DNA from: Citrus sinensis
Lineage: Eukaryota; Streptophyta; Magnoliopsida; Sapindales; Rutaceae
Reading direction: 5' to 3'
Length of the DNA stretch: 64,000 nt
Assembly (NCBI RefSeq): GCF_022201045.2
Contig: NC_068558.1
Coordinates: forward strand, 868,001-932,000
The translations under genes were made by a program, and so were the position numbers. Below are positions 11,291 to 63,987 of the stretch, in pieces; position 1 is the stretch's first letter; each line of letters starts with the position of its first letter. A model generated the notes under the pieces. That model was given only the letters and a program-made list of their open reading frames with translations. It did not search any database and had not been told where the DNA came from.

Positions 11291-11765
11291 TAGCAGGTGA
11301 TTGACCTTTGCAAAATGCCACAACTTTGTTATTTTGGCAGGGAAAACCAAATTCAGCTATTGTAAAATACTGTTCTTGTTTCATCAGCAGAAGATTGGCC
11401 TTTGCAAAATGCTACAACTTCGTTATTATGGCAGGAAAAACCAGATTCACTTATTGGATCGCACGAGAAAACAGCTAATGTACAAAATGTGTGTTGACCT
11501 TTGCTGTTAACTCGAATCAAATGGACAAATGGTTACTATTAGAATAGTTCAAAGACCCTAAAACGACACTAGAACTATAGAAGTAAAGATAACCAAAGTT
11601 GTAATTACAAAGTAGACTTATACAAATTTAGCTAGTGCTCATAGTTGAAGTATACTGTTCTTGTTTCTTCAGCAGAAGATTGGCCTTTGTAAAATGACAC
11701 GGCTTCGTTATTATGGCAGGAAAAACCAGATTCATTCACTCGATTTCACTAGAAGACAAAATGGC
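11291..11765. repeat. Three diverged copies of a ~90-bp unit next to the F-box pseudogene
   Basis: Units at about 11291-11365, 11384-11475 and 11665-11760 share GATTGGCCTTTGCAAAATG and TTATTATGGCAGGAAAAACC or close variants. The last unit runs into the 3' end of the F-box/DUF295 pseudogene, where the coding strand reads EAVPFCLLV. The others therefore look like local duplications of the gene's 3' end region, though the exact history is inference. Confidence 0.65.
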
Positions 11766-12794
11766 ACGGCTTCGTATACGCCAGTATCGTATGGCGGTAC
11801 CACATTGGAAGTTTGTGTTAGACAGGAATCATCAGCGAAATAAATACAATTTGCTTTGAAATAATTTCCTCCTGCAGCAACCAAAGATTTTGAAGTACGC
11901 TTGCCCAATAAAATTGCATGATTGCCGATATTTGTCACCTCAGCCCATTCTTGCATATTCCAATCCAATTTGTAGACCTCGAACGCACACGTCCCACTCA
12001 CCCAAATTACATATCTTGAAACAAGCAGCAAGTCGCCATTCAACTCTAACAAGTAGTTAGTCATCGTATTGGAATACTGCTGAAATTGATGTTTCTGAAC
12101 CGGCAATGCTTCAGTTGAAGAGGGAGAATGATGATGAAGACCAAATTCAAATCTTATACGATAGATGGTACAACAATCACCGATATAATAAAAATTACCC
12201 TTATAAAAAACAGTATCCTTACCAAGACAACAGTCGCTATAATCGTAACAAGGGGGCATGTGTTCTTGTACCTTGGTCCATGACGATGTGTCTCCGGGTC
12301 TGCACATGTACGGGACATTCTAAAGCAAGAACTAGGCAGTTGGGATCTTGAGGGCGTGCAGATGTGATCACTTTCAAGCCGTTGAGTGTGCAGAAGGATT
12401 CTGTCTCTTGTGGATGTGGTGGTGGTGGTAACTCGACTTTGGACTTGGTAAAAGGATTCCAGAGACAAATATTTTGTGTTGGACTTCCAACTGTTAGCAG
12501 CCATCCAAAGAATGTACTCGAAAACCATCTGCCCTTTAATTCTTCTGGCAATGATATTTCATATGTTTTATTTGTCTGGGGTTTGAAGAAGATGCAAGAT
12601 TGAGTGTTTGTGGGAATTTTATATTCGTTGTAGTTGGAGAGCAATAAGAAAGGAGGGGATATCAGTTTGAGTTTCTGAAAATCCGTTTTAATGGCAGATC
12701 GCCATGCCAGACAGACTGCTGAACATCTTGCGATATCATCCCAATCTGTCAGGTTTTGGAAGACAAGGAATAAGAGTTCACTTGGAATACTTGA
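11732..12794 (-). pseudogene. F-box/DUF295-type protein gene, frameshifted
   Basis: Reading down the minus strand from 12794, an F-box helix region IPSELLFLVFQNLTDWDDIA is followed by ARCSAVCLAWRSAIK. Then come FKPQTNKTYEISLP, CLWNPFTKSKVELPPPP and SWTKVQEHMP, and lastly KLDWNMQEWAEVTNIGNHAI. This is the order of plant F-box proteins with a C-terminal DUF295 beta-propeller-like domain, which act as substrate adaptors of SCF ubiquitin ligases. Two defects are visible. There is one frame change around 12307-12330, between ALECPVHV and CRPGDTSSW. There is also a TGA directly upstream of the F-box (12795-12797) with no start codon in frame, unless a distant exon supplies one. The stop is at 11732-11734. 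It is probably a recent pseudogene, since most of the protein is still readable. Confidence 0.8.
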
Positions 12795-19391: not shown

Positions 19392-22300
19392 TTAGTTGCC
19401 AAAACGGCCTCTAGCCCAGGGCACTCTCGGACGTCCACCACGGCCACCCCCATTGAGTTGTACACCACCACCATTATTTGCGGGTGAGAAGGCTTTCATC
19501 CTCCGCTCCTTCATATTAGCAAAAAGCGAGTCCAGCGTTTGAGGCCTCTGCTTTGGCACAGCATTATCCTCCTGACGCAGGTGCTGTTGTTGCTTCATCC
19601 GTGGCTGCAAAGCAGATACTCTATCAAGATTGATGACTTTCAAATCATTAAACCTCAAGCAAAATAATGTTTAACACTTTGGGGACACATATTGCTAAAT
19701 CACAAAGTCATAAAACAGTTTTAAAAGCAGCAAATTAATATTTAACACTTCGGAGACCCATAGTGATAAACCACTAAGTCATACAACAAATTTAGAAACA
19801 GTCAAGTAAATCTACTAGTTGATTACTATTATCAACCTAGAACGTTGATATCCTCACCACTAAGTCATACAACAAATTTAGAAACAGTCAAGTAAATCTA
19901 CTAGTTGATTACTCTTATCAACCTAGAACGTTGATATCCTCACATTCTAGTTAAGTTTCTATAATGTAAATAAAGCTCAATGAGCACTCAGAATTGGTCA
20001 ATTCCAAATGAACCTAAGTCGGTCATACACATACCCAAGCCATATGAAAACACGTGCATTATTAGATGCAAAATAACACCATTCATCTAGAAAATACTCA
20101 TAAATCTACCTTTCTTACTCATAGGACACAACTGTTATTTTGTAGAATACATCTTAGTGGAAAATAGAAAATTAAATGGAAAGATACCTTTCCAGCAAAG
20201 CCCCCATTTGCAGCCCTCCTCTGAACAGGCACAGCTCCAACCCTGCATACATAAATATAAAGGGGATAATGATTGGAGAATTGAAACAGCATATACAATC
20301 AAGAGGCTGTTTCCGACAAGAGATGCAAGTACCATCCAAGAGGTATTAATCAGTCACTCGAAAGCACTATACACAACCACTCAGTTCAAGACTAGAGAGT
20401 CTTACCATCATGGATCCTTATCATATTGAACTAACAAAAAGATAAGAAAAACCATTGCAGGATAAATAAAGGCACTTCAAGAAGAGGAAAGAGCTATTCT
20501 CCCGTTTCTTTTTAATCCACAATAGTTTTCCAATCGCAGACAAACTGTGGGGCTCAAGCTCATACAGTAAATGAAATGCTCTGATATCACAAATAAGGAG
20601 ACAACCATGTAGCAGCAGATCAGGGACCAACCGCAAGGGCCAATTCTCCAAGCAGTCCAAACCAGCAAGTTCCCCCTACACAACTGCCAATCCTTCTTGA
20701 AAACAACAAAAATAACACACCAGCCATACAAACCTATCTACCTACAGGAGACCACAAATTCTGCTCCCACACCCATCTAAGGTGTACCCTCCATTAACCA
20801 TTTACACCCATTTAAAATGTGCCCTCCAATAACCATTTACAAGACTCCAAGAGCCTCCAATTGATTATGACCATTTACAGCACAAAAATTTCAGTTTCGC
20901 CCAAAATTCAGAACTCAGATTTTGTTCACAACACCAACCTTCACCCAAACATCCTTGTCAGTTTTGTAGGTTCCAGTCAACGGTTCTTAAAGCAAATGAC
21001 AACCAGTTATGGGACAAAACTAGGAATACACAAAGATGTGGCATCAGTCAACTGACTAGAGAAACAAGGGAAGTTCCACAGTCCAGAAACCCCCTTTAAA
21101 AGATTAGCACCAATGATGCACCCATATGCTCATTCAATAGCTTCCCACCTGGTGAAAGATACTTGAATTTCCAAGTAAATTGGTGGAAAATGGATAAAGG
21201 AAAACAGATGAACCAGCAGCAAATGACATGACTCTGGAGAGAAAGCAGGTAGCAGAATTCATCATCGAGTACAGCCTCAAGAGAATACTGATGATGCAGG
21301 TGAAGACATCATAATCACAACTCTTCAGAACAACAAAAAAGCATAACCAACTAATCTAAATTACAACAGCCACGCATGATAGTGTAACCAAAAACCCCCT
21401 TGATCATAGCTTGGTAGGAAAAGAAATTATCTATCAATGCAATCAACCAGCTAACATGCAGAGCTATAATTTGCACAATGCGCAAATTATAGCTCTCATC
21501 AAAATACTATGCTTGCCACAACATCAAAACCCCATATCAGACTTATTGTATGTTTGCACCCATCTCCATTGCATCATATCTTCTTGCTCATCGCATGGAA
21601 CCAGATTCTTCACAGCCAAACAAAAAAATATGACAGCTTCTCCAAAGGAGCCCACAAATGGCCAAAAGATATGTGTGCCACTTAACCTAATTGGCAAAAC
21701 TCTTCATATCACATTTATGAAGACTATTATGCAGACATTCTATTCTTTTATGGCATGAACCGAAACAGTCTATTTTAAAAAACTCTCAATCAGATTGGCC
21801 ACTTGCTACCAAAACCAGGAGTACTATAAAATACACGAGCTGACATAAATTTAACCCGAAGCACATAGGAGACACCATCAATATTATAAGACCATGATTT
21901 ACCTGCAAAATAGTAACCAACTTTACTCATAATTTCATTGTCACTAAATTTAAGGATTTGGATTTAATCAAGAGCAGCTTAATACCTTGCTCTGCTCATT
22001 TTATTAGCCACCATGCTACCATTAAAAGCTCTATTGCGAGCAGCAGCAACCGCAGTCATCCGTGCTACCTCAGTTGCCATAGGGAAATGGTTACGCTGGA
22101 AATTTGACCTTCTCTGAGCTAAAACACCCTGATGATCAAACATCAAGCAGTCATATCAGAATCCATCAACAAAGCTCAAACATAACAATTTAGCACTGCC
22201 AGCAGTCTTTACCTGTCTAAGAGATGATCTTGAGCTCATATATTGTCGCACTTTCAAAGACTTATCCTGAACAGCATTATTAAAAACTTTCCGGCTTTTG

Positions 22301-34661: not shown

Positions 34662-35303
34662 TAAGGGAAATTTTTAACCTACCCCCAAATAAATTGACAT
34701 TTTACACCATGCACAAAACAAAATGACGTGTTGCACCGAACCCCCAATTCCGTTAATTTTTCAGTTATTTCTAACGGTTCCGTCTAACTTTTGATTGAAT
34801 GACAAAAATGCCCCTCTATGTAAAAAAAAACAAAATTTTTAGCTCATTTAATTTTTTTAAGGTTTTTATTTCAATTGCAATAAAAAAATTTCTTGTTACA
34901 TGTACATTGTCACCACTATTATTTTTTCTTTAATTTTTTTAAGATTTTTATTTCAATTACAATAAAAAAAATTTCTTGTTACATGTACATTTGTCACCAC
35001 TATTATTTTTCCTTTAATTTTTTAAGGTTTTTATTTCAATTGCAATAAAAAAAAATTCTTGTTACATGTACATTGTCACCACTATTATTTTTCCTTTAAT
35101 TTTTTAAAGATTTTTATTTCAATTGTAATAAAGAGAATTCCCATTAAAATTAATTTAATGAATGAACTTTCAATTTTACCCTTCCACCGTTAAACATAAC
35201 TGAGAAAATAACGGAATTGAGGGCGCGGTGTAACAAGTCAAATTTTTTGAGAACGCGGTGCAAAATGTCAATTTATTTGAGGGTAGATTAAAAATTTCCC
35301 TAA
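34662..35303. mobile_element. Long-TIR non-autonomous DNA element with internal tandem repeats
   Basis: The first and last ~120-150 bp are inverted copies. Both ends, read inward, give AAGGGAAATTTTTAA (or TAGGG...), CTACC, CAAATAAATTGACATTTT, CACC, CAATTCCGTTA and AACGG. Between them lie about four tandem copies of a ~75-bp unit (listed separately). Both flanks are (TAA)n, so the exact end and duplication cannot be fixed. Long TIRs suggest a Mutator-type MITE, but a 9-bp duplication cannot be shown here. Confidence 0.75.
34849..35135. repeat. Four tandem ~75-bp units inside the long-TIR element
   Basis: Each unit has TTTTTATTTCAATTGCAATAA (with changes), a run of A, TTCTTGTTACATGTACATT and GTCACCACTATTATT. 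The fourth unit is partial. Internal satellite-like arrays are known in some plant non-autonomous elements. Confidence 0.85.
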
Positions 35304-36988: not shown

Positions 36989-37322
36989 AAAAATAGCATT
37001 CAATAGAGCGAATCGAAAGGCTTAAACACCTGGAGCCCAAGTTGACGCTTAAACCGGCCCAGACCCGCCTAAAAGGCAGCTCTATCGATTGGCGAAGACC
37101 CAGGGCAAGAGTCGACAAACTGACAAAGTAATTGTAGCTCAAGTATATGTGTTGTCGACAACTCATGAAAAAGACAATTCTGTGCAGATAAAATAGGATT
37201 CACACATCTGTAAGTGACAGAATAATCAACCCTATCCAATAAAAGCTACTTCGTGGCTAAAATTATACGGCAACAATTTCCCTTCTCTCACAGAAACTGC
37301 AACTCTGGTTCCTGCAACAGCC

Positions 37323-38039
37323 ATGGCTTCTTCAATCAATCTCCACACCCTTCAAGGTCCCCTGCTTAAATCTCACTTTCTTGGCCAAAATCAAGTCTCC
37401 TACAGACCTCAGAAACCATATTTGGCCACGCCAAAACAACCATCAAAGGTTCTGAAACCTTGTGCTAAATTCGACCTATTTGAAATCATGGGAGGCAGAG
37501 GACTGTGTAATGGAGAGAAAGGTATAGAACTAGAGCTGAAGAGAAATGTAACGGAACAAGAATCACAAGTTGCTGATAAAGAAGAAGAAAGTTCAGCTAG
37601 TACTGCAATGCCGTCAACTCTTAGTGCACCGGAAGGTGCATTTGAAAAAGAGATGATGGGGCTAACTGGAGGATTTCCGGGTGGGGAAAAGGGATTGCAG
37701 CTATTCATTGAGCAAAACCCACCTCCCCAAAAACCAGTGACTGCGGATTCAGGCGATGTAGTGGCTCTCACTACCACGAGGAAGCCGAAACCGCCTGAAT
37801 GGCCACTTCTAATGCCTGGTATGTTTGCCATTGTGAAGAATCCGAACAATCCATTTTACATGTACTGTGGTATTGTTCAGAGGATCACAGATGGAAAGGC
37901 AGGGGTTCTTTTTGAGGGGGGAAATTGGGATCGGTTGATCACTTTCAGGCTAGATGAGCTGGAACGCAGAGAAAAGGGTCCTCCAGGAAGAAATCCCAAG
38001 TCCGCTGTCCTTGAAGGAATGATCAAGAAACAAGAATAA
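37323..38039 (+). CDS. NDHS: NAD(P)H dehydrogenase-like complex subunit S, plastid (NdhS/CRR31), single exon
   Basis: NdhS is the ferredoxin-binding subunit of the thylakoid NDH complex, which drives cyclic electron flow around photosystem I. The frame is 238 aa without introns, from ATG 37323 to TAA 38037-38039. Residues 1-50 form a transit peptide (MASSINLHTLQ..., Ser/Lys-rich). FDLFEIMGGRGLCNGEKGI follows, a block conserved in NdhS, then a variable acidic linker and EKEMMGLTGGFPGGEKGL. The C-terminal ~80 residues (WPLLMPGMFAIVKNPNNPFY onward, with GVLFEGGNWDRLITFRLDEL) form the SH3-like fold that binds ferredoxin, with the conserved Arg-containing surface present. The length is normal and nothing is broken. 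Expression would be expected to be light- and leaf-linked, but no element here proves that. Confidence 0.95.
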   Translation: MASSINLHTLQGPLLKSHFLGQNQVSYRPQKPYLATPKQPSKVLKPCAKFDLFEIMGGRGLCNGEKGIELELKRNVTEQESQVADKEEESSASTAMPSTLSAPEGAFEKEMMGLTGGFPGGEKGLQLFIEQNPPPQKPVTADSGDVVALTTTRKPKPPEWPLLMPGMFAIVKNPNNPFYMYCGIVQRITDGKAGVLFEGGNWDRLITFRLDELERREKGPPGRNPKSAVLEGMIKKQE

Positions 38040-57850: not shown

Positions 57851-58433
57851 TTAATCCTACTTATATGTAGTCCAAAGGAGATTACTAACTATAATTGTTT
57901 AAAAATAGTGTTATTTTGATTATTTCAACGCGGTTTTGACACTTTATTTATTACTAATAATTTTTTTTTAAAGTAGAGGTTATTTAAATCAAATCAATTT
58001 TTTTTTTAATTTACTCTCATCTTTATTAGATCAAAGTGGAGTAGTTAAATAAACATACTTTAAAATCACTCCGCCAAGCACTAGTGATAGTAATTTTGAC
58101 TTTGAATGAAAATTGAACTAAATACAAAATAAAGATAAAGGAGTATGATTGTAATTCATAAATTAATCCTGGAAGGCTCGAACTCTATTGTTGATTGTTG
58201 CAATGAAATTTATTCTGAAATAGATAATAATATTAAATTTTGCATTATTTCATAGAAAAACAATTTGCAGCAGCTGTAACCAAGCATACTTTGGTTTTTT
58301 TTTTTTTTTAAAGTAGTTGACGAATTAAAATGAGGTCAAAGAGTCGAGCCACCAAATGGGCAAATAGTATGCATGCGATCACAAAAATCTGCATTAAATT
58401 TTAATTATCTTCGGTGACCAAGTGACACGGGTT

Positions 58434-61400
58434 CAGTGGCGGACCCAGGAAATAAATTCAGAAGGGGCTTAATATAAATTGATAAAAAAATTCGACAAGA
58501 TAATAAAAGCCAACTGAAAAAATAATAAGTAAAATATTCAATTTTATTGACATAATCATTTTTAAAACTTCTTCAACTGTTCTCGACGTGTTTTCATATT
58601 TTGAAAACGTCGAATAATATCTTCATTGTCAATACAAGCAAATACATCTTTTTCTATGTATACAACTAAGTTATCATTCAGCCATTGATCACCCATCCGG
58701 TTTCGAAGTCGATTCTTCACAAAATTCATGGCTGAAAATACTCTTTCTACAGTGGCAGTAGCTACAGGTAGAATTAAAGCCAATGTAACCAATTGGTAAA
58801 CTAACGGGTACACTTTGTCCTTTTTAGTCTTAACCATTGTCCTTGCAAGTTCACCAATCCCTTTCAATTCTGAAAATTCTGCACTAGATCGTAAATCCAT
58901 AATGTATACATCAAGTTGCATCTCAAGTGCTATAAGATCTATTGCAGAAAAATCTTTAGGATAAAATTCAGCAAGTCGCAGTAATTTTTCCTTGTCAAAA
59001 ACTGCAAACAAATCATTTGGACATAGACAAGCCAAACAAATAAGCAACTGAGTATTTGACTCATTGAAACGATTATTTAGCTCTTGAAGTTGCATGTCTA
59101 AGACAGCATAAAATAACTCAACTCGATACCGATGTAAATTTGTGATCTCTCGAGCTTTACGGCGTGATCGCCCTGGAATTAAAAACAAATCATCCATATC
59201 TAAAACATCGATATCATGCTTGCTACAGAAAGTAGAAACTTGACCAAATAAAGAATCCCATCCACTATCTCTCAACTTCTGAAGGTTATGCTTATAAACT
59301 TCAACCAATTTTACAGCATTCAAAATATCTTGATCTTTCCTTTGTAGTGCTCGTGACAATTCATTTGCATAGCCAAGAATATTTTTCATTAAGAATAAAC
59401 AAAATACAAAATCAAATGATTGCATCAACTTCAATAGCGTATTAGCTTGAAATCTTTGTTCAGAATTTCCTTCAACTTCAATTACCTCAAGCACATCAAC
59501 CACAGATGGAAACATAGAAATTATGCTCATTAACATACCATAATGAGAAGACCAGCGTGTATCAGCAGGACGCTTTAAAGTAATCTCCTGATTTAAACCT
59601 TGTCCACTTGAAAGCTCGCCTTTACCTAATGCTTCAATAACTGCAAGAGCATGTTTCTCATGTAGAATGTCACGACGTTTAGCTGACACTCCAACAACAT
59701 TAATTAGCATTGAAACTAAATTGAATAAAGAATTAACTTCCTCATGCTTTTTTGCCACGGAAATAAGAGCTAACTGAAGTTGATGAGCAAAACAATGAAC
59801 ATAATAAGCAGATTCATTCTCCTCTAAAATGAGCGTTTTCAAACCATTAAACTCACCCTGCATATTACTTGCCCCATCATAACCTTGCCCACGTAACATT
59901 GACAAACTCAATCCAAACCTTGAAAACATATTGTCAAGAGATTCTTTAAGTGAGGCAGCTGTAGTGCTAGAAACATGTTCAATGCCTACAAAACGTTCAA
60001 CCACATATCCATTCTTATCCACATAACGTAATACAACAGCCATTTGCTCTTTTGTAGATATATCACGAGACTCATCAATTAGAATAGAAAATAATGCACC
60101 ATCCATCTCTCTAATAATAGCATTAGTAGTTTCAGTTGCAACACAACTTACAATGTCTTTTTGGATCTTTGGAGATGTCATTTGCAGATTTAGAGGAGTA
60201 TTTTTGAAAGTAACAGCATTAATATCTTCATTATGATCAGCAAGGAAGTGTAAAAGCTCAAGAAAATTCCCTTTGTTGCTTGAACCATCAGATTCATCAT
60301 GCCCACGAAATGCTAGCCCTTGATTTAAAAGAAATCGAATACAATCAACAACAGCATTCAAGCGAGTTTCATATTCACTTTGAGTTTTCTCGGATTGTCT
60401 TTCAAAAAATGTTGCAATATGTTGTTTCTGATTCATCAACCTTTCACATTTCTGCCTAGCTCGATTATGGGCACTATTGACACCTCCTTCATGAATCTTT
60501 AATTTTTCTTTTTTTTTCCAATTTTTAAATCCTTTCCCAGTAAAAGTATCACTACCTGCTTGATCACCATTATCTTCTTTGAAAAGATAACAAAAAAGAC
60601 AATATGCAGACTCTTCTTTTATACTATATTCCAGCCAAGAACCAAATTCTTTGAACCAATCCGAAACAAATCGTCGTTGTTGATTTCCAAATTTCTCAAA
60701 TTTAAAATTGTGCCCCTTAGGTTGAAAAGGACCCCTTTGTAAGTATATTCTTCGGACTTGATCTCGAATATTACAATTATAACTATCAATACAAGGTCGT
60801 AAGCCAGGGTCAGCAGGCAAATTTTGTAAATTGACTTCATATGAACCATGACTAGTTCCTTCTAAAGGAGATGGGAGCTGTGGTTTCTTTTTAAAAAATT
60901 TTTCCATATCTGTTTCAAATCAAATAAAACTATTAATTATTAGATTAAATTTCACAGTAAGGCTAAATCCTAACAAAATAACGAACAAGAATAATTAATT
61001 TAATACAAATTTGATATTATAAAAACATTATTTGACAACACACCCAATGGGGCTCACGGGAAAGATACATGATTGTAAATTTTACTTTTTCAATTGCTCA
61101 TTTATTTGCATTAACAAAGTGATTGCTTTTAATTATAATTTATATAATAAATTATACACCACTTAAAACTTTAATCATTTCACAGAGCACCTAGTGGGTG
61201 CCACCCACTGTCCCACCACTTTCCCTTTCAATTTTAATATTAAAGAATTGCTCACTTTTCACAAATCAACTTTTACTTTTGGAATTTTGTAGATAGCTAT
61301 CAGAATAAGAATTGATGAACGAAGTTAGAGAGATGCAGCACATTCATTCGACCAGAATCATTAGTCAAACTTCAAAACAACATTCAAGCACAATACCTGT

Positions 61401-61837
61401 TTCAATCTATGGGCTATGGCTGATCTAGCAAGGGACGAAATCATCAAAGGCTCAGCGATCGCGGCAACAGATAACAACGAGTTGGTGGCAGACTGGCAGC
61501 AGGAATGGAAACGTTCGTCGGTGGCGGTGGCCGGTCTTTGTGATTTGGTGATTCACAGTTTCATGATTTTGGGGTTTGTTTTTTTATTCCTTTAATTTTT
61601 TTATTATTAATATAAAACGATGAGTTTTGTAAGTTAGTTTTAAATTAGAATTTGATTAAATTAAAAAGTTTTTATTATTTAAATGGGTTTAATTTCAAAG
61701 CCCAAAATACTTTGTTTTTGTTGAGAAAAGTTATTGGACTTAATAATTAAAAGGGGTTTTATGGGCTAAATTTAAAAAAATTTTAAGGCTCAGGGGGGGC
61801 TTAAGCCCCTCCTGGGCCTGAACTGGGTCCGCCCATG
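58434..61837 (-). mobile_element. Apparently complete hAT DNA transposon
   Basis: The element is 3404 bp with terminal inverted repeats (CAGTGGCGGACCCAGG at the left; the right end read inward is CATGGGCGGACCCAG) and a perfect 8-bp target duplication CACGGGTT at 58426-58433 and 61838-61845. Both ends carry an imperfect inverted GAAGGGGCTTAA / GAGGGGCTTAAGC block just inside. It contains one open 781-aa transposase gene on the minus strand. The two TIRs differ slightly. All parts needed for an autonomous hAT element seem present, though activity cannot be judged from sequence. Confidence 0.92.
58562..60907 (-). CDS. hAT transposase, TTF-type zinc finger (ZMYM1-like), 781 aa, uninterrupted
   Basis: The protein would bind the element's ends and cut and paste it. 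The frame is open from ATG 60907 to the stop at 58562-58564. A TTF-type zinc finger spans residues about 75-150 (YCLFCYLF with Cys103/Cys106; His139 and His147). A DUF4371-type RNase-H-like core follows, with LIDESRDIS (Asp278), GQGYDGASNM (Asp344) and HCFAHQLQLAL (Cys372, His375). A PADTRWSSHY block comes next, then the C-terminal hAT dimerisation region ATATVERVFSAMN (Glu721) with KNRLRNRM. The candidate DDE residues are therefore all present. Upstream, a GAAACAG|GTATTG donor (61396) and a GAAACAG|ATATGG acceptor before the ATG suggest a leader exon at about 61397-61540 and one 5' UTR intron. This is not a domesticated gene by context, since it sits between TIRs. Confidence 0.93.
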   Translation of the reverse strand: MEKFFKKKPQLPSPLEGTSHGSYEVNLQNLPADPGLRPCIDSYNCNIRDQVRRIYLQRGPFQPKGHNFKFEKFGNQQRRFVSDWFKEFGSWLEYSIKEESAYCLFCYLFKEDNGDQAGSDTFTGKGFKNWKKKEKLKIHEGGVNSAHNRARQKCERLMNQKQHIATFFERQSEKTQSEYETRLNAVVDCIRFLLNQGLAFRGHDESDGSSNKGNFLELLHFLADHNEDINAVTFKNTPLNLQMTSPKIQKDIVSCVATETTNAIIREMDGALFSILIDESRDISTKEQMAVVLRYVDKNGYVVERFVGIEHVSSTTAASLKESLDNMFSRFGLSLSMLRGQGYDGASNMQGEFNGLKTLILEENESAYYVHCFAHQLQLALISVAKKHEEVNSLFNLVSMLINVVGVSAKRRDILHEKHALAVIEALGKGELSSGQGLNQEITLKRPADTRWSSHYGMLMSIISMFPSVVDVLEVIEVEGNSEQRFQANTLLKLMQSFDFVFCLFLMKNILGYANELSRALQRKDQDILNAVKLVEVYKHNLQKLRDSGWDSLFGQVSTFCSKHDIDVLDMDDLFLIPGRSRRKAREITNLHRYRVELFYAVLDMQLQELNNRFNESNTQLLICLACLCPNDLFAVFDKEKLLRLAEFYPKDFSAIDLIALEMQLDVYIMDLRSSAEFSELKGIGELARTMVKTKKDKVYPLVYQLVTLALILPVATATVERVFSAMNFVKNRLRNRMGDQWLNDNLVVYIEKDVFACIDNEDIIRRFQNMKTRREQLKKF

Positions 61838-62023
61838 CACGGGTTCCATACAAAATATAACAAGATCAGTCTAAAAGTCGCAATTCCTCGACGAATAAAA
61901 ATTCCACATGCACCTCTATAATTATAAACATGAATCTTTTAATTAGAAATCCTTAAGCTTAAGCCTCCTGGCCGACCTTCAACTCTCTTTTGTGACACAA
62001 AAATTTATTATAATAAAAATAAC

Positions 62024-62507
62024 ATGGCTTCCTCAGAAGCAGAAGCACAAGTATTCCTCTTCTCCATTTGTATTGTACTGTCATTTATTCACGGAGGCGG
62101 CAGTACTGCTATCACTTGCCCCATAAAATGCCGGATCAACGGGCCGGAAGTTCAGTTTCCTTTCCGGCTTATCAATCAACCCGAGCGCTGTGGCTACCCG
62201 GGTTATGATCTTTCATGCAACAACATGACCAGAACGGTCATACAACTGCCGAATTCAGGGGAATTCATTGTCCTTAGCATTGACTACTTGAGCCAAACCT
62301 TAATACTCAACGAATCCGAGCCCAACAGCTGTCTCCCCGGCCTGTTCCTTGACAAATCATTTAGTCTAGCCGGGTCTCCTTTTGATGAGCAAGAGTACCC
62401 TTCAGAGTTCACGTTTCTTAACTACTTGTCTGATGATCAGATACTAACCACTATTAGTGGATTATTAAGAATCGTTGATTGTCTAAGCGGAGAAAACTTC
62501 ACTGTTT
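62024..62507 (+). pseudogene. Truncated ATL21/ATL22-like gene (galacturonan-binding ectodomain only)
   Basis: The frame starts MASSEAEAQVFLFSICIVLS, a signal peptide. It then has the Cys-rich GUB_WAK-type domain CPIKCRINGPEVQFPFRL, RCGYPGYDLSCNNMTRTV, LPNSGEFIVLSIDYLSQTL and GLFLDKSFSLAGSPF. This is the N-terminal half of plant RING-H2 proteins ATL20-22, whose ectodomain resembles that of wall-associated kinases. Normal members continue with a second Cys-rich part, a membrane segment and a RING-H2 finger; none of these is present. From about 62508 the sequence is CACTA-like transposon sequence, which supplies the last few codons and the stop at 62531-62533. The remaining half is uninterrupted, so the break may be recent. 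Confidence 0.8.
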
Positions 62508-62720
62508 ACTACTACAAAAATGACCTTTACTGACACTTCGTTTCTGACACTTTGTAAAAAGTGTCAGTAATGGTATACATTTGGATCATTTTTTCCATTT
62601 AACAAATATGAATCATAAATTACTGGTACTAAGGTGTCAATAGCATAAAACTCAGTAATTACCGATACTTTAGTATCAGTGATAAAAACAAATATTATTC
62701 TAATTATGTTTTTACTTGGA
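62508..62720. mobile_element. End of a CACTA-like transposon
   Basis: The start ACTACTACAAAAATGACC resembles the CACTACAAGAAA ends of plant CACTA elements. It is followed by inverted GACACTTTGTAAAAAGTGTCAG repeats in the subterminal region. The far end is not found, so length and completeness are unknown. It cuts the ATL-like gene. Confidence 0.55.
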
Positions 62721-63760
62721 CTCGAACTCAATATCTCCGAAGTTAAAATTTTAATTTCAAACTACAAACCACTTGTGTGGATATTTTCTTTTTTTGGTTA
62801 GACCGTATATAATTAACTACAAACCCTTTGCTATAATTTAACACAAAATTTTTGATCTCCCTCCACTAAAATTTTTTCCCTCTCAAACAAACTAAAATCC
62901 AAATCCCTAAAATTCCAAGTGCCTAAATCCCTAACTCTCCCTAAGCACTAACCAGCAGCAGCCCCTCTCTAAGGCCTTACCAGCACGCACGATGACAACG
63001 GCACACGCAGCCTGCGCGGCGGCAGCCCAGCAGGTCGTACCACACACTGCAGTAGCTCGCTCGCTTTCACTCTTTCTCTGAAGGCACACACAGTAGCGGC
63101 AACCCCTCTCTTTCAAGCTCGTTTAGTCGCTCTCACTTTCTCCGTCTTTGGTCACCATCTCACCCTCCATTCTAAATTATTGCCGTTGCAGCCGCGTTCA
63201 GCCGTAGCTATCGCGCTGGGCGCTTGAGACAGTGAGTTGAGATTCCACTTTTTAATTTTTTCATTAATTTTTTGTCTGAATTAGATTAGTCAAATACTCA
63301 AATTAATTGAGTTGTGAGTATTACTGCAATAATTTAATTTGCCCCGCATCCCCTGAAGAAGGTAAGCAACTCCATTTTTAGGGTTCGTGTAGTAGTTGTC
63401 TTGCCTGAATCGCCTTTGTAATCATAAGGTCGATTTTCTCAAGAAGGGCAACTTCGATCTTTTGGCATTTTCAGTGCTTCTTCTGAATCTCTCTTCACTG
63501 TAGCTTGCTTCTGCATGTGATTTGAGGGCCAAGAATTTATCTTAAGGGCGAATCATATTATGTTTCAATTCTCTGTTTGACCCTTTTAACTTTTGAATTT
63601 CAACATTATGTGTTTAGTGTTCCGTTAGTTGTTTTATCAAATACATAGGCCTCTGGGCTTTAGACACTAGTGTTGAAAATTGCCATCTAGTTTTTATGGT
63701 ATCTTTGAGTAGGGGTTTCGCTTCATTTGCTTGAATATATAAAAGATCAGTTTTTATTGT
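62721..63760. other. Unassigned stretch with leader-like sequence
   Basis: From about 62880 to 63240 the DNA is richer in C and G and looks like a gene leader (CTCTCTTTC, then GTAGCTATCGCGC). A possible splice donor (GAAG|GTAAGC) is near 63360. No coding exon could be tied to it; it might belong to a gene beyond the right edge. Confidence 0.3.
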
Positions 63761-63761
63761 C

Positions 63762-63987
63762 ATGGATAAAAAAAAAAAAACAAGGCTTTGGCCAATGGTA
63801 CCTCAGGAGGTCAAAGCCAAGGCTTCCAAAGACAATGTTCCCACGATCGATGTGACTCAGTTTGGCTACTTTAAGGTTTTGGGTAAGGGCCTTTTGCTTG
63901 AGAACCAACTCGTTGTAGTGAAGCGTTTCCAAAACAGCCAAGAAGAAAATTAAAAAAGCTGGTGGGTCTGTTGTGTTTACTGCTTAG
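63762..63987 (+). pseudogene. RPL27A: Ribosomal protein L27a fragment, frameshifted
   Basis: The frame from 63762 reads [17 protein letters not shown], then [20 protein letters not shown], which is the C-terminal half of eukaryotic large-subunit protein uL15 (L27a). After VVVK the frame shifts: a second frame gives [18 protein letters not shown] and a stop at 63985-63987, exactly the normal C-terminus. A few bases are missing between the two. The N-terminal ~80 residues are absent and an A run replaces the expected upstream codons. It is therefore a broken fragment, probably from a processed copy. Confidence 0.85.

What the first reader, a model, noticed from the sequence alone, without database searches (positions are those of the whole stretch)
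58434..61837. Apparently intact hAT transposon with perfect 8-bp target duplication
TIRs, an uninterrupted 781-aa transposase with all candidate catalytic and zinc-binding residues, and an exact CACGGGTT duplication occur together. Most plant hAT copies are decayed, so a whole one is a candidate for current or recent activity. The 8-bp duplication and conserved motifs are seen directly; activity is inference.
Basis: partly seen in the sequence, partly recalled or inferred. Interest (0 to 1): 0.75.

Follow-up and report, generated by a model that had tools for sequence, protein, structure and literature searches.

The report
Structurally complete Tip100-type plant hAT transposon
This stretch of a plant genome holds a whole-looking jumping gene of a well-known type, inserted just upstream of a receptor-like gene; nothing available here can show whether it still moves, and such copies are ordinary in plants.

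Summary
A 3,404-bp element (58434-61837) has inverted ends (CAGTGGCGGACCCAG / CATGGGCGGACCCAG, 13 of 15 alike) and an exact, non-extending 8-bp duplication CACGGGTT. Its one uninterrupted 781-codon frame matches Pfam DUF4371 (2.1e-83) and Dimer_Tnp_hAT (4.5e-8). Alignment to Hermes transposase puts D278, R451/W452 and E721 on Hermes D180, R318/W319 and E572. Ends, duplication length and sizes resemble Tip100 (PMC12511174): a new member of a known kind. Corrections: the ends are not identical, and the predicted leader-intron acceptor is 60910, not 60913. One intact copy is not rare: in grapevine 96 of 594 near-full-length hAT copies of the eight multicopy families kept a potentially functional frame (PMC2528002). 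If the frame drifted neutrally, it allows about 0.03 substitutions per site since insertion under assumed rates, so the copy is fairly young or was kept by selection. Activity is untested: no genome is held, and copy number, empty sites, dN/dS and expression stay open. The insertion lies 178 bp upstream of the ATG of a GUB_WAK_bind gene, head to head.

The parts
58426..58433 (+). left copy of the target site duplication, CACGGGTT
58434..58448 (+). left terminal inverted repeat CAGTGGCGGACCCAG
58463..58472 (+). left subterminal motif AGGGGCTTAA, shared in inverted orientation with the right end
   Evidence: read; GGGCTT counted 4 times in the two ends (130 and 290 bases, both strands) and 0 times in the interior
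58562..60907 (-). transposase frame, 781 aa, no stop: TTF-type zinc finger region (about 88-147, recalled motif), DUF4371 120-355, D278, D344, C372xxH375, R451/W452, E721 in the hAT dimerisation region (696-754)
60910..61396 (-). predicted leader intron, GT...AG, 487 nt, with TTGAAACAG at both borders
   Evidence: predicted only, no transcript data
61397..61560 (-). predicted untranslated leader exon, richer in G+C than its surroundings; its start is not known
61783..61822 (.). right subterminal palindrome, arms of 20 nt, 85% complementary; holds the right copy of AGGGGCTTAA (61810-61801, minus)
   Evidence: motif read
61823..61837 (-). right terminal inverted repeat, CATGGGCGGACCCAG read on the minus strand
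61838..61845 (+). right copy of the target site duplication, CACGGGTT

Best explanation
This is a structurally complete, potentially autonomous cut-and-paste DNA transposon of the hAT superfamily, Tip100-like, in a plant (a flowering plant, by inference from its genes). By analogy with Hermes, Ac and Tip100 (mechanism recalled), its single transposase would bind the two ends through its N-terminal zinc finger and subterminal motifs, cut with a D278-D344-E721 RNase-H-like active site leaving hairpins on the flanking DNA, and join the element to a new site with staggered cuts 8 bp apart, leaving the CACGGGTT duplication. Shown here: the ends, the duplication, the frame, the domain matches and the alignment of two catalytic acids. 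Inferred: the chemistry, the zinc finger's role, expression and present mobility. My estimate that this copy could still encode an active enzyme is about 0.5-0.6; that it moves today, much lower. The confidence below is for the identity (structurally complete hAT element), not for activity.
For: Exact 8-bp duplication and inverted ends. Uninterrupted 781-codon frame. DUF4371 over all 237 profile positions at 2.1e-83 and Dimer_Tnp_hAT at 4.5e-8, both over Pfam's cut-offs. The four best of 7 matched PDB sequences, at 5.9e-6 to 9e-6, are two named Hermes transposase and two named only 'TRANSPOSASE'; D278 falls on Hermes D180 and E721 on E572 (ungapped stretch). Published Tip100: 3.8 kb, 11-bp ends CAGGGGCGGAG, 808 aa, 8-bp duplications (PMC12511174, passages). 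The 11 outer bases here differ from it at 2 positions at each end (left 4 and 11, right 3 and 11). DUF4371 is reported in BuT2, a Tip-group transposase (PMC3942097, passages). Plant host: NdhS and GUB_WAK_bind matches in the window.
Against: No second copy, empty site, transcript or related sequence was available. The ends differ at positions 3-4, which could weaken cutting at one end. The Hermes stretches do not pass on their own (E 2.4 to 29 each). The structure prediction without an alignment failed (mean pLDDT 34.4). Placement beside Tip100 rests on ends, size and DUF4371, not on a tree. One paper says that DUF4371 proteins are absent in plants (PMC3985635, passages), which does not fit this window.
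Confidence: 0.93

Rival explanations
1. A recently inserted but now immobile copy: the frame is open only because too little time has passed, while the element is silenced or its right end is impaired. This agrees with the identity above and differs on activity, so its odds are not exclusive of it.
For: 363 one-step nonsense changes, 67 of them transitions: an open frame is still 6% likely at 0.03 substitutions per site counting nonsense changes alone, and 4% at 0.01 with indels at an assumed 0.1 per substitution. The right end departs from the left at positions 3-4.
Against: Nothing here shows silencing. Imperfect ends also occur in active hAT elements (recalled for Ac).
Confidence: 0.4
2. 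A domesticated transposase gene kept by selection for a host function, with old ends still visible.
For: Long intact frame; grapevine has single-copy hAT-derived genes (PMC2528002, passages).
Against: Domesticated transposons in general lack ends and duplications (PMC2528002, passages); here both are present and the duplication is exact.
Confidence: 0.04
3. A chance assembly of end-like and duplication-like strings around an unrelated frame.
For: Two short end repeats with two mismatches, taken alone, could mislead; 1 of 100 shuffles also had two end-like matches somewhere.
Against: Both end-like matches lie at the two borders; chance of the duplication about 3.5e-5; transposase domains lie between them.
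Confidence: 0.005

Closest known systems
Tip100 (Ipomoea purpurea), hAT superfamily, Tip group
   Same: 8-bp duplications; similar ends (9 of 11 positions at each end); one long transposase frame of about 800 aa; element of 3-4 kb (PMC12511174, passages)
   Different: 3,404 bp against 3.8 kb; 781 aa against 808; activity shown for Tip100, not here. Protein identity not measured, as no Tip100 sequence is held.
BuT2 (Drosophila), Tip group
   Same: DUF4371 plus hAT dimerisation region; 8-bp duplications (PMC3942097, passages)
   Different: 643 aa in five exons, 12-bp ends, 2,775 bp, insect host
Hermes (recalled as the Musca domestica hAT element; also named so in PMC3942097)
   Same: weak sequence match over three stretches; D278, R451/W452 and E721 fall on D180, R318/W319 and E572
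   Different: 612 aa; overall similarity low, each stretch below significance on its own

Membership tests
hAT superfamily | 8-bp target site duplication | tested here: met
   exact, non-extending CACGGGTT
hAT superfamily | short terminal inverted repeats (10-25 bp), element 2.5-5 kb | tested here: met
   15 bp, 13 alike; 3,404 bp; ranges from PMC3942097 (passages)
hAT superfamily | C-terminal hAT dimerisation region | tested here: met
   PF05699, 4.5e-8, residues 696-754
hAT superfamily | RNase-H-like D, D, E active site | tested here: inconclusive
   first D and E align with Hermes D180 and E572; second D by motif only; structure model unusable
Tip group (Tip100 type) | transposase falls with Tip100/BuT2 in a tree | not testable with these tools
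   no Tip100 or BuT2 sequence at hand; no relatives found
Tip group (Tip100 type) | DUF4371 domain (reported for BuT2; whether it defines the group was not checked) | tested here: met
   PF14291, 2.1e-83, full profile; BuT2
Tip group (Tip100 type) | ends like CAGGGGCGGAG | tested here: met
   similar, not identical: 9 of 11 positions at each end
Ac group / Buster group | duplication of the form nTnnnnAn (Ac) or nnnTAnnn (Buster), both recalled | tested here: not met
   CACGGGTT, compared by eye, fits neither on either strand; one site is weak evidence
currently active element | polymorphic insertions, near-identical copies, transcripts | not testable with these tools
   no genome held

The most novel reading that the evidence does not exclude
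A currently mobile autonomous Tip100-type element whose insertion 178 bp upstream of a wall-associated-receptor-type gene changes that gene's expression, and whose leader intron arose as an inserted segment flanked by a 9-bp direct repeat (TTGAAACAG at both splice borders).
Probability: 0.04. Interest if true: 0.5.

Novelty: new member of a known kind. Interest (0 to 1): 0.15.

Why it matters
If active, it would be a natural source of new insertions and a possible tagging tool in this species, as Tip100 has been used for transgenesis in medaka (PMC12511174, passages). As it stands it is one well-formed copy of a common plant transposon type, useful mainly as a reference copy for annotating its family and for asking whether its insertion affects the neighbouring GUB_WAK_bind gene.

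Tried and rejected
Relatives were sought in viral contigs and genome contigs with the protein (5 and 43 pattern matches, none confirmed by tblastn) and with a degenerate pattern for the QGYDGAxNM motif (none), and in plasmids and phages by tblastn (none). By their descriptions these are not plant collections, so the misses say little about plants. The structure prediction from the single sequence had mean pLDDT 34.4 with 781 of 781 residues under 50 (some searches were waiting calls), so no fold search was run. Seven paper searches were made. Those for the end sequence did not help: one search matched 5,235,307 papers because 'hat' was found inside words; one search listed 11 papers, none of which looks like a paper on a plant hAT element from title and start of abstract (listing only). 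Four papers were opened, by passages only, plus section 6 of PMC2528002. The bacterial promoter scan is not meaningful in a plant and was ignored. Rfam at gathering scores and the tRNA scan gave nothing in the window. A nested element in the leader intron was considered: I saw no convincing terminal repeats among those listed. A NADPH_Ox match (E 0.092), an MreC match (E 0.05) and three PDB matches (E 0.34-0.73) were treated as chance.

Full report
What is there. The element runs from 58434 to 61837, 3,404 bp. Its left end reads CAGTGGCGGACCCAG and its right end, on the minus strand, CATGGGCGGACCCAG: 13 of 15 positions agree, the two mismatches being positions 3 and 4. The left 16-mer finds only these two places in 64 kb at up to three mismatches; 100 shuffles gave a mean of 0.05 matches, and 1 of 100 had two. 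CACGGGTT stands immediately outside both ends (58426-58433, 61838-61845), and the identity does not extend beyond 8 bases. The ends also share AGGGGCTTAA in inverted orientation (58463-58472; 61810-61801; read), the right copy within a 40-base palindrome whose arms are 85% complementary.

The protein. The minus-strand frame 58562-60907 encodes 781 aa without a stop; 200 single-base shuffles of the element reached at most 138 codons stop to stop, against 785. Codon positions differ strongly in G+C (0.49, 0.32, 0.23), as expected of a coding sequence in an A+T-rich genome. Pfam finds DUF4371 over its full length at 2.1e-83 and Dimer_Tnp_hAT at 4.5e-8. Among solved structures the four best of 7 matched sequences, at 5.9e-6 to 9e-6, are two named Hermes transposase and two named only 'TRANSPOSASE'; no single stretch passes on its own (E 2.4 to 29 in the two alignments shown). 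Numbering that alignment puts D278 on Hermes D180, and the ungapped stretches put R451/W452 on R318/W319 and E721 on E572. That these Hermes residues are catalytic or needed is recalled. D344 (GYDGAS), C372xxH375 and the TTF-type zinc finger residues are motif readings from memory. One paper states that DUF4371 proteins carry an N-terminal TTF zinc finger and usually additional domains including the hAT dimerisation region (PMC3985635, passages); it also says that they are absent in plants, which this window contradicts.

The host. A frame with NdhS (37218-38039) and one with GUB_WAK_bind (62024-62533) point to a plant; that it is a flowering plant is inference. The species was not identified.

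Leader. TTGAAACAG occurs at both borders, and 12 of 13 bases agree across them. Among 13,935 pairs of an AGGT site and an AG site 200-1000 nt downstream, both strands of the window, 3 share the nine bases before the site and 1 reaches 12 of 13; the intron's own pair falls within that scan, so it is that one. The test was made after the fact, and the repeat may be chance.

Age and activity. The frame has 363 one-step nonsense changes, 67 of them transitions. If it had drifted neutrally since insertion, an open frame has a 6% chance at 0.03 substitutions per site counting nonsense changes, and 4% at 0.01 if indels occur at 0.1 per substitution (the transition share of two thirds and the indel rate are assumptions). 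So the copy is fairly young or was kept by selection until recently. This does not show that it moves. A copy count, empty sites, dN/dS and transcripts would bear on it, and none could be had: no genome is held, and the searches of viral, prokaryote, plasmid and phage collections found no relative.

What it is. Published Tip100 is 3.8 kb with 11-bp ends CAGGGGCGGAG, an 808-aa transposase and 8-bp duplications (PMC12511174, passages). The element here agrees at 9 of 11 end positions on each side, and roughly in size, and in duplication length. [quoted passage not shown] Membership of the hAT superfamily is firm; the Tip placement is likely but was not tested by a tree.

How unusual. In grapevine 597 of 1,459 hAT copies keep at least 90% of the transposase gene (PMC2528002, passages). 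Summing Table 2 over the eight multicopy families (Hatvine-1, -2, -3, -6, -7, -9, -10, -11), 96 of 594 such copies have potentially functional frames (section 6; the five single-copy families, Vinesleeper-1 and -2 and Hatvine-4, -5 and -8, were left out of the sum). This is one species, and it may not be the one in the window.

Neighbourhood. The right duplication ends 178 bp before the ATG at 62024 of the GUB_WAK_bind frame, and the two genes point away from each other. An effect on that gene is possible and untested.

Noticed in passing
60910-61396 (-): The predicted leader intron is flanked by a direct repeat, TTGAAACAG, at both splice borders (12 of 13 bases alike), as an inserted segment with a duplicated border would leave; may be chance.
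   Followed up: partly
61397-61560 (-): G+C-rich leader exon with an upstream ATG at 61444 whose frame reads MISSLARSAIAHRLKQ up to the donor and, by hand reading, is out of frame with the transposase; a captured host exon or an ordinary upstream frame are both possible.
   Followed up: no
62024-62533 (+): GUB_WAK_bind frame (Pfam 3.5e-18) with the transposon's right duplication ending 178 bp upstream of its ATG; the rest of the gene was not traced beyond.
   Followed up: partly
63735-63953 (+): Frame of 72 codons that, from memory, resembles ribosomal protein L27a and may be a gene fragment or retrocopy; no Pfam match at E 0.01.
   Followed up: partly
11732-12794 (-): F-box plus KIB1-4 beta-propeller gene whose parts lie in two overlapping frames, as if frameshifted.
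   Followed up: no
34844-35139 and 19770-19941: Tandem repeats: copies spaced 83 bp apart (three 130-nt matches), and an 86-bp unit twice at 99% identity.
   Followed up: no
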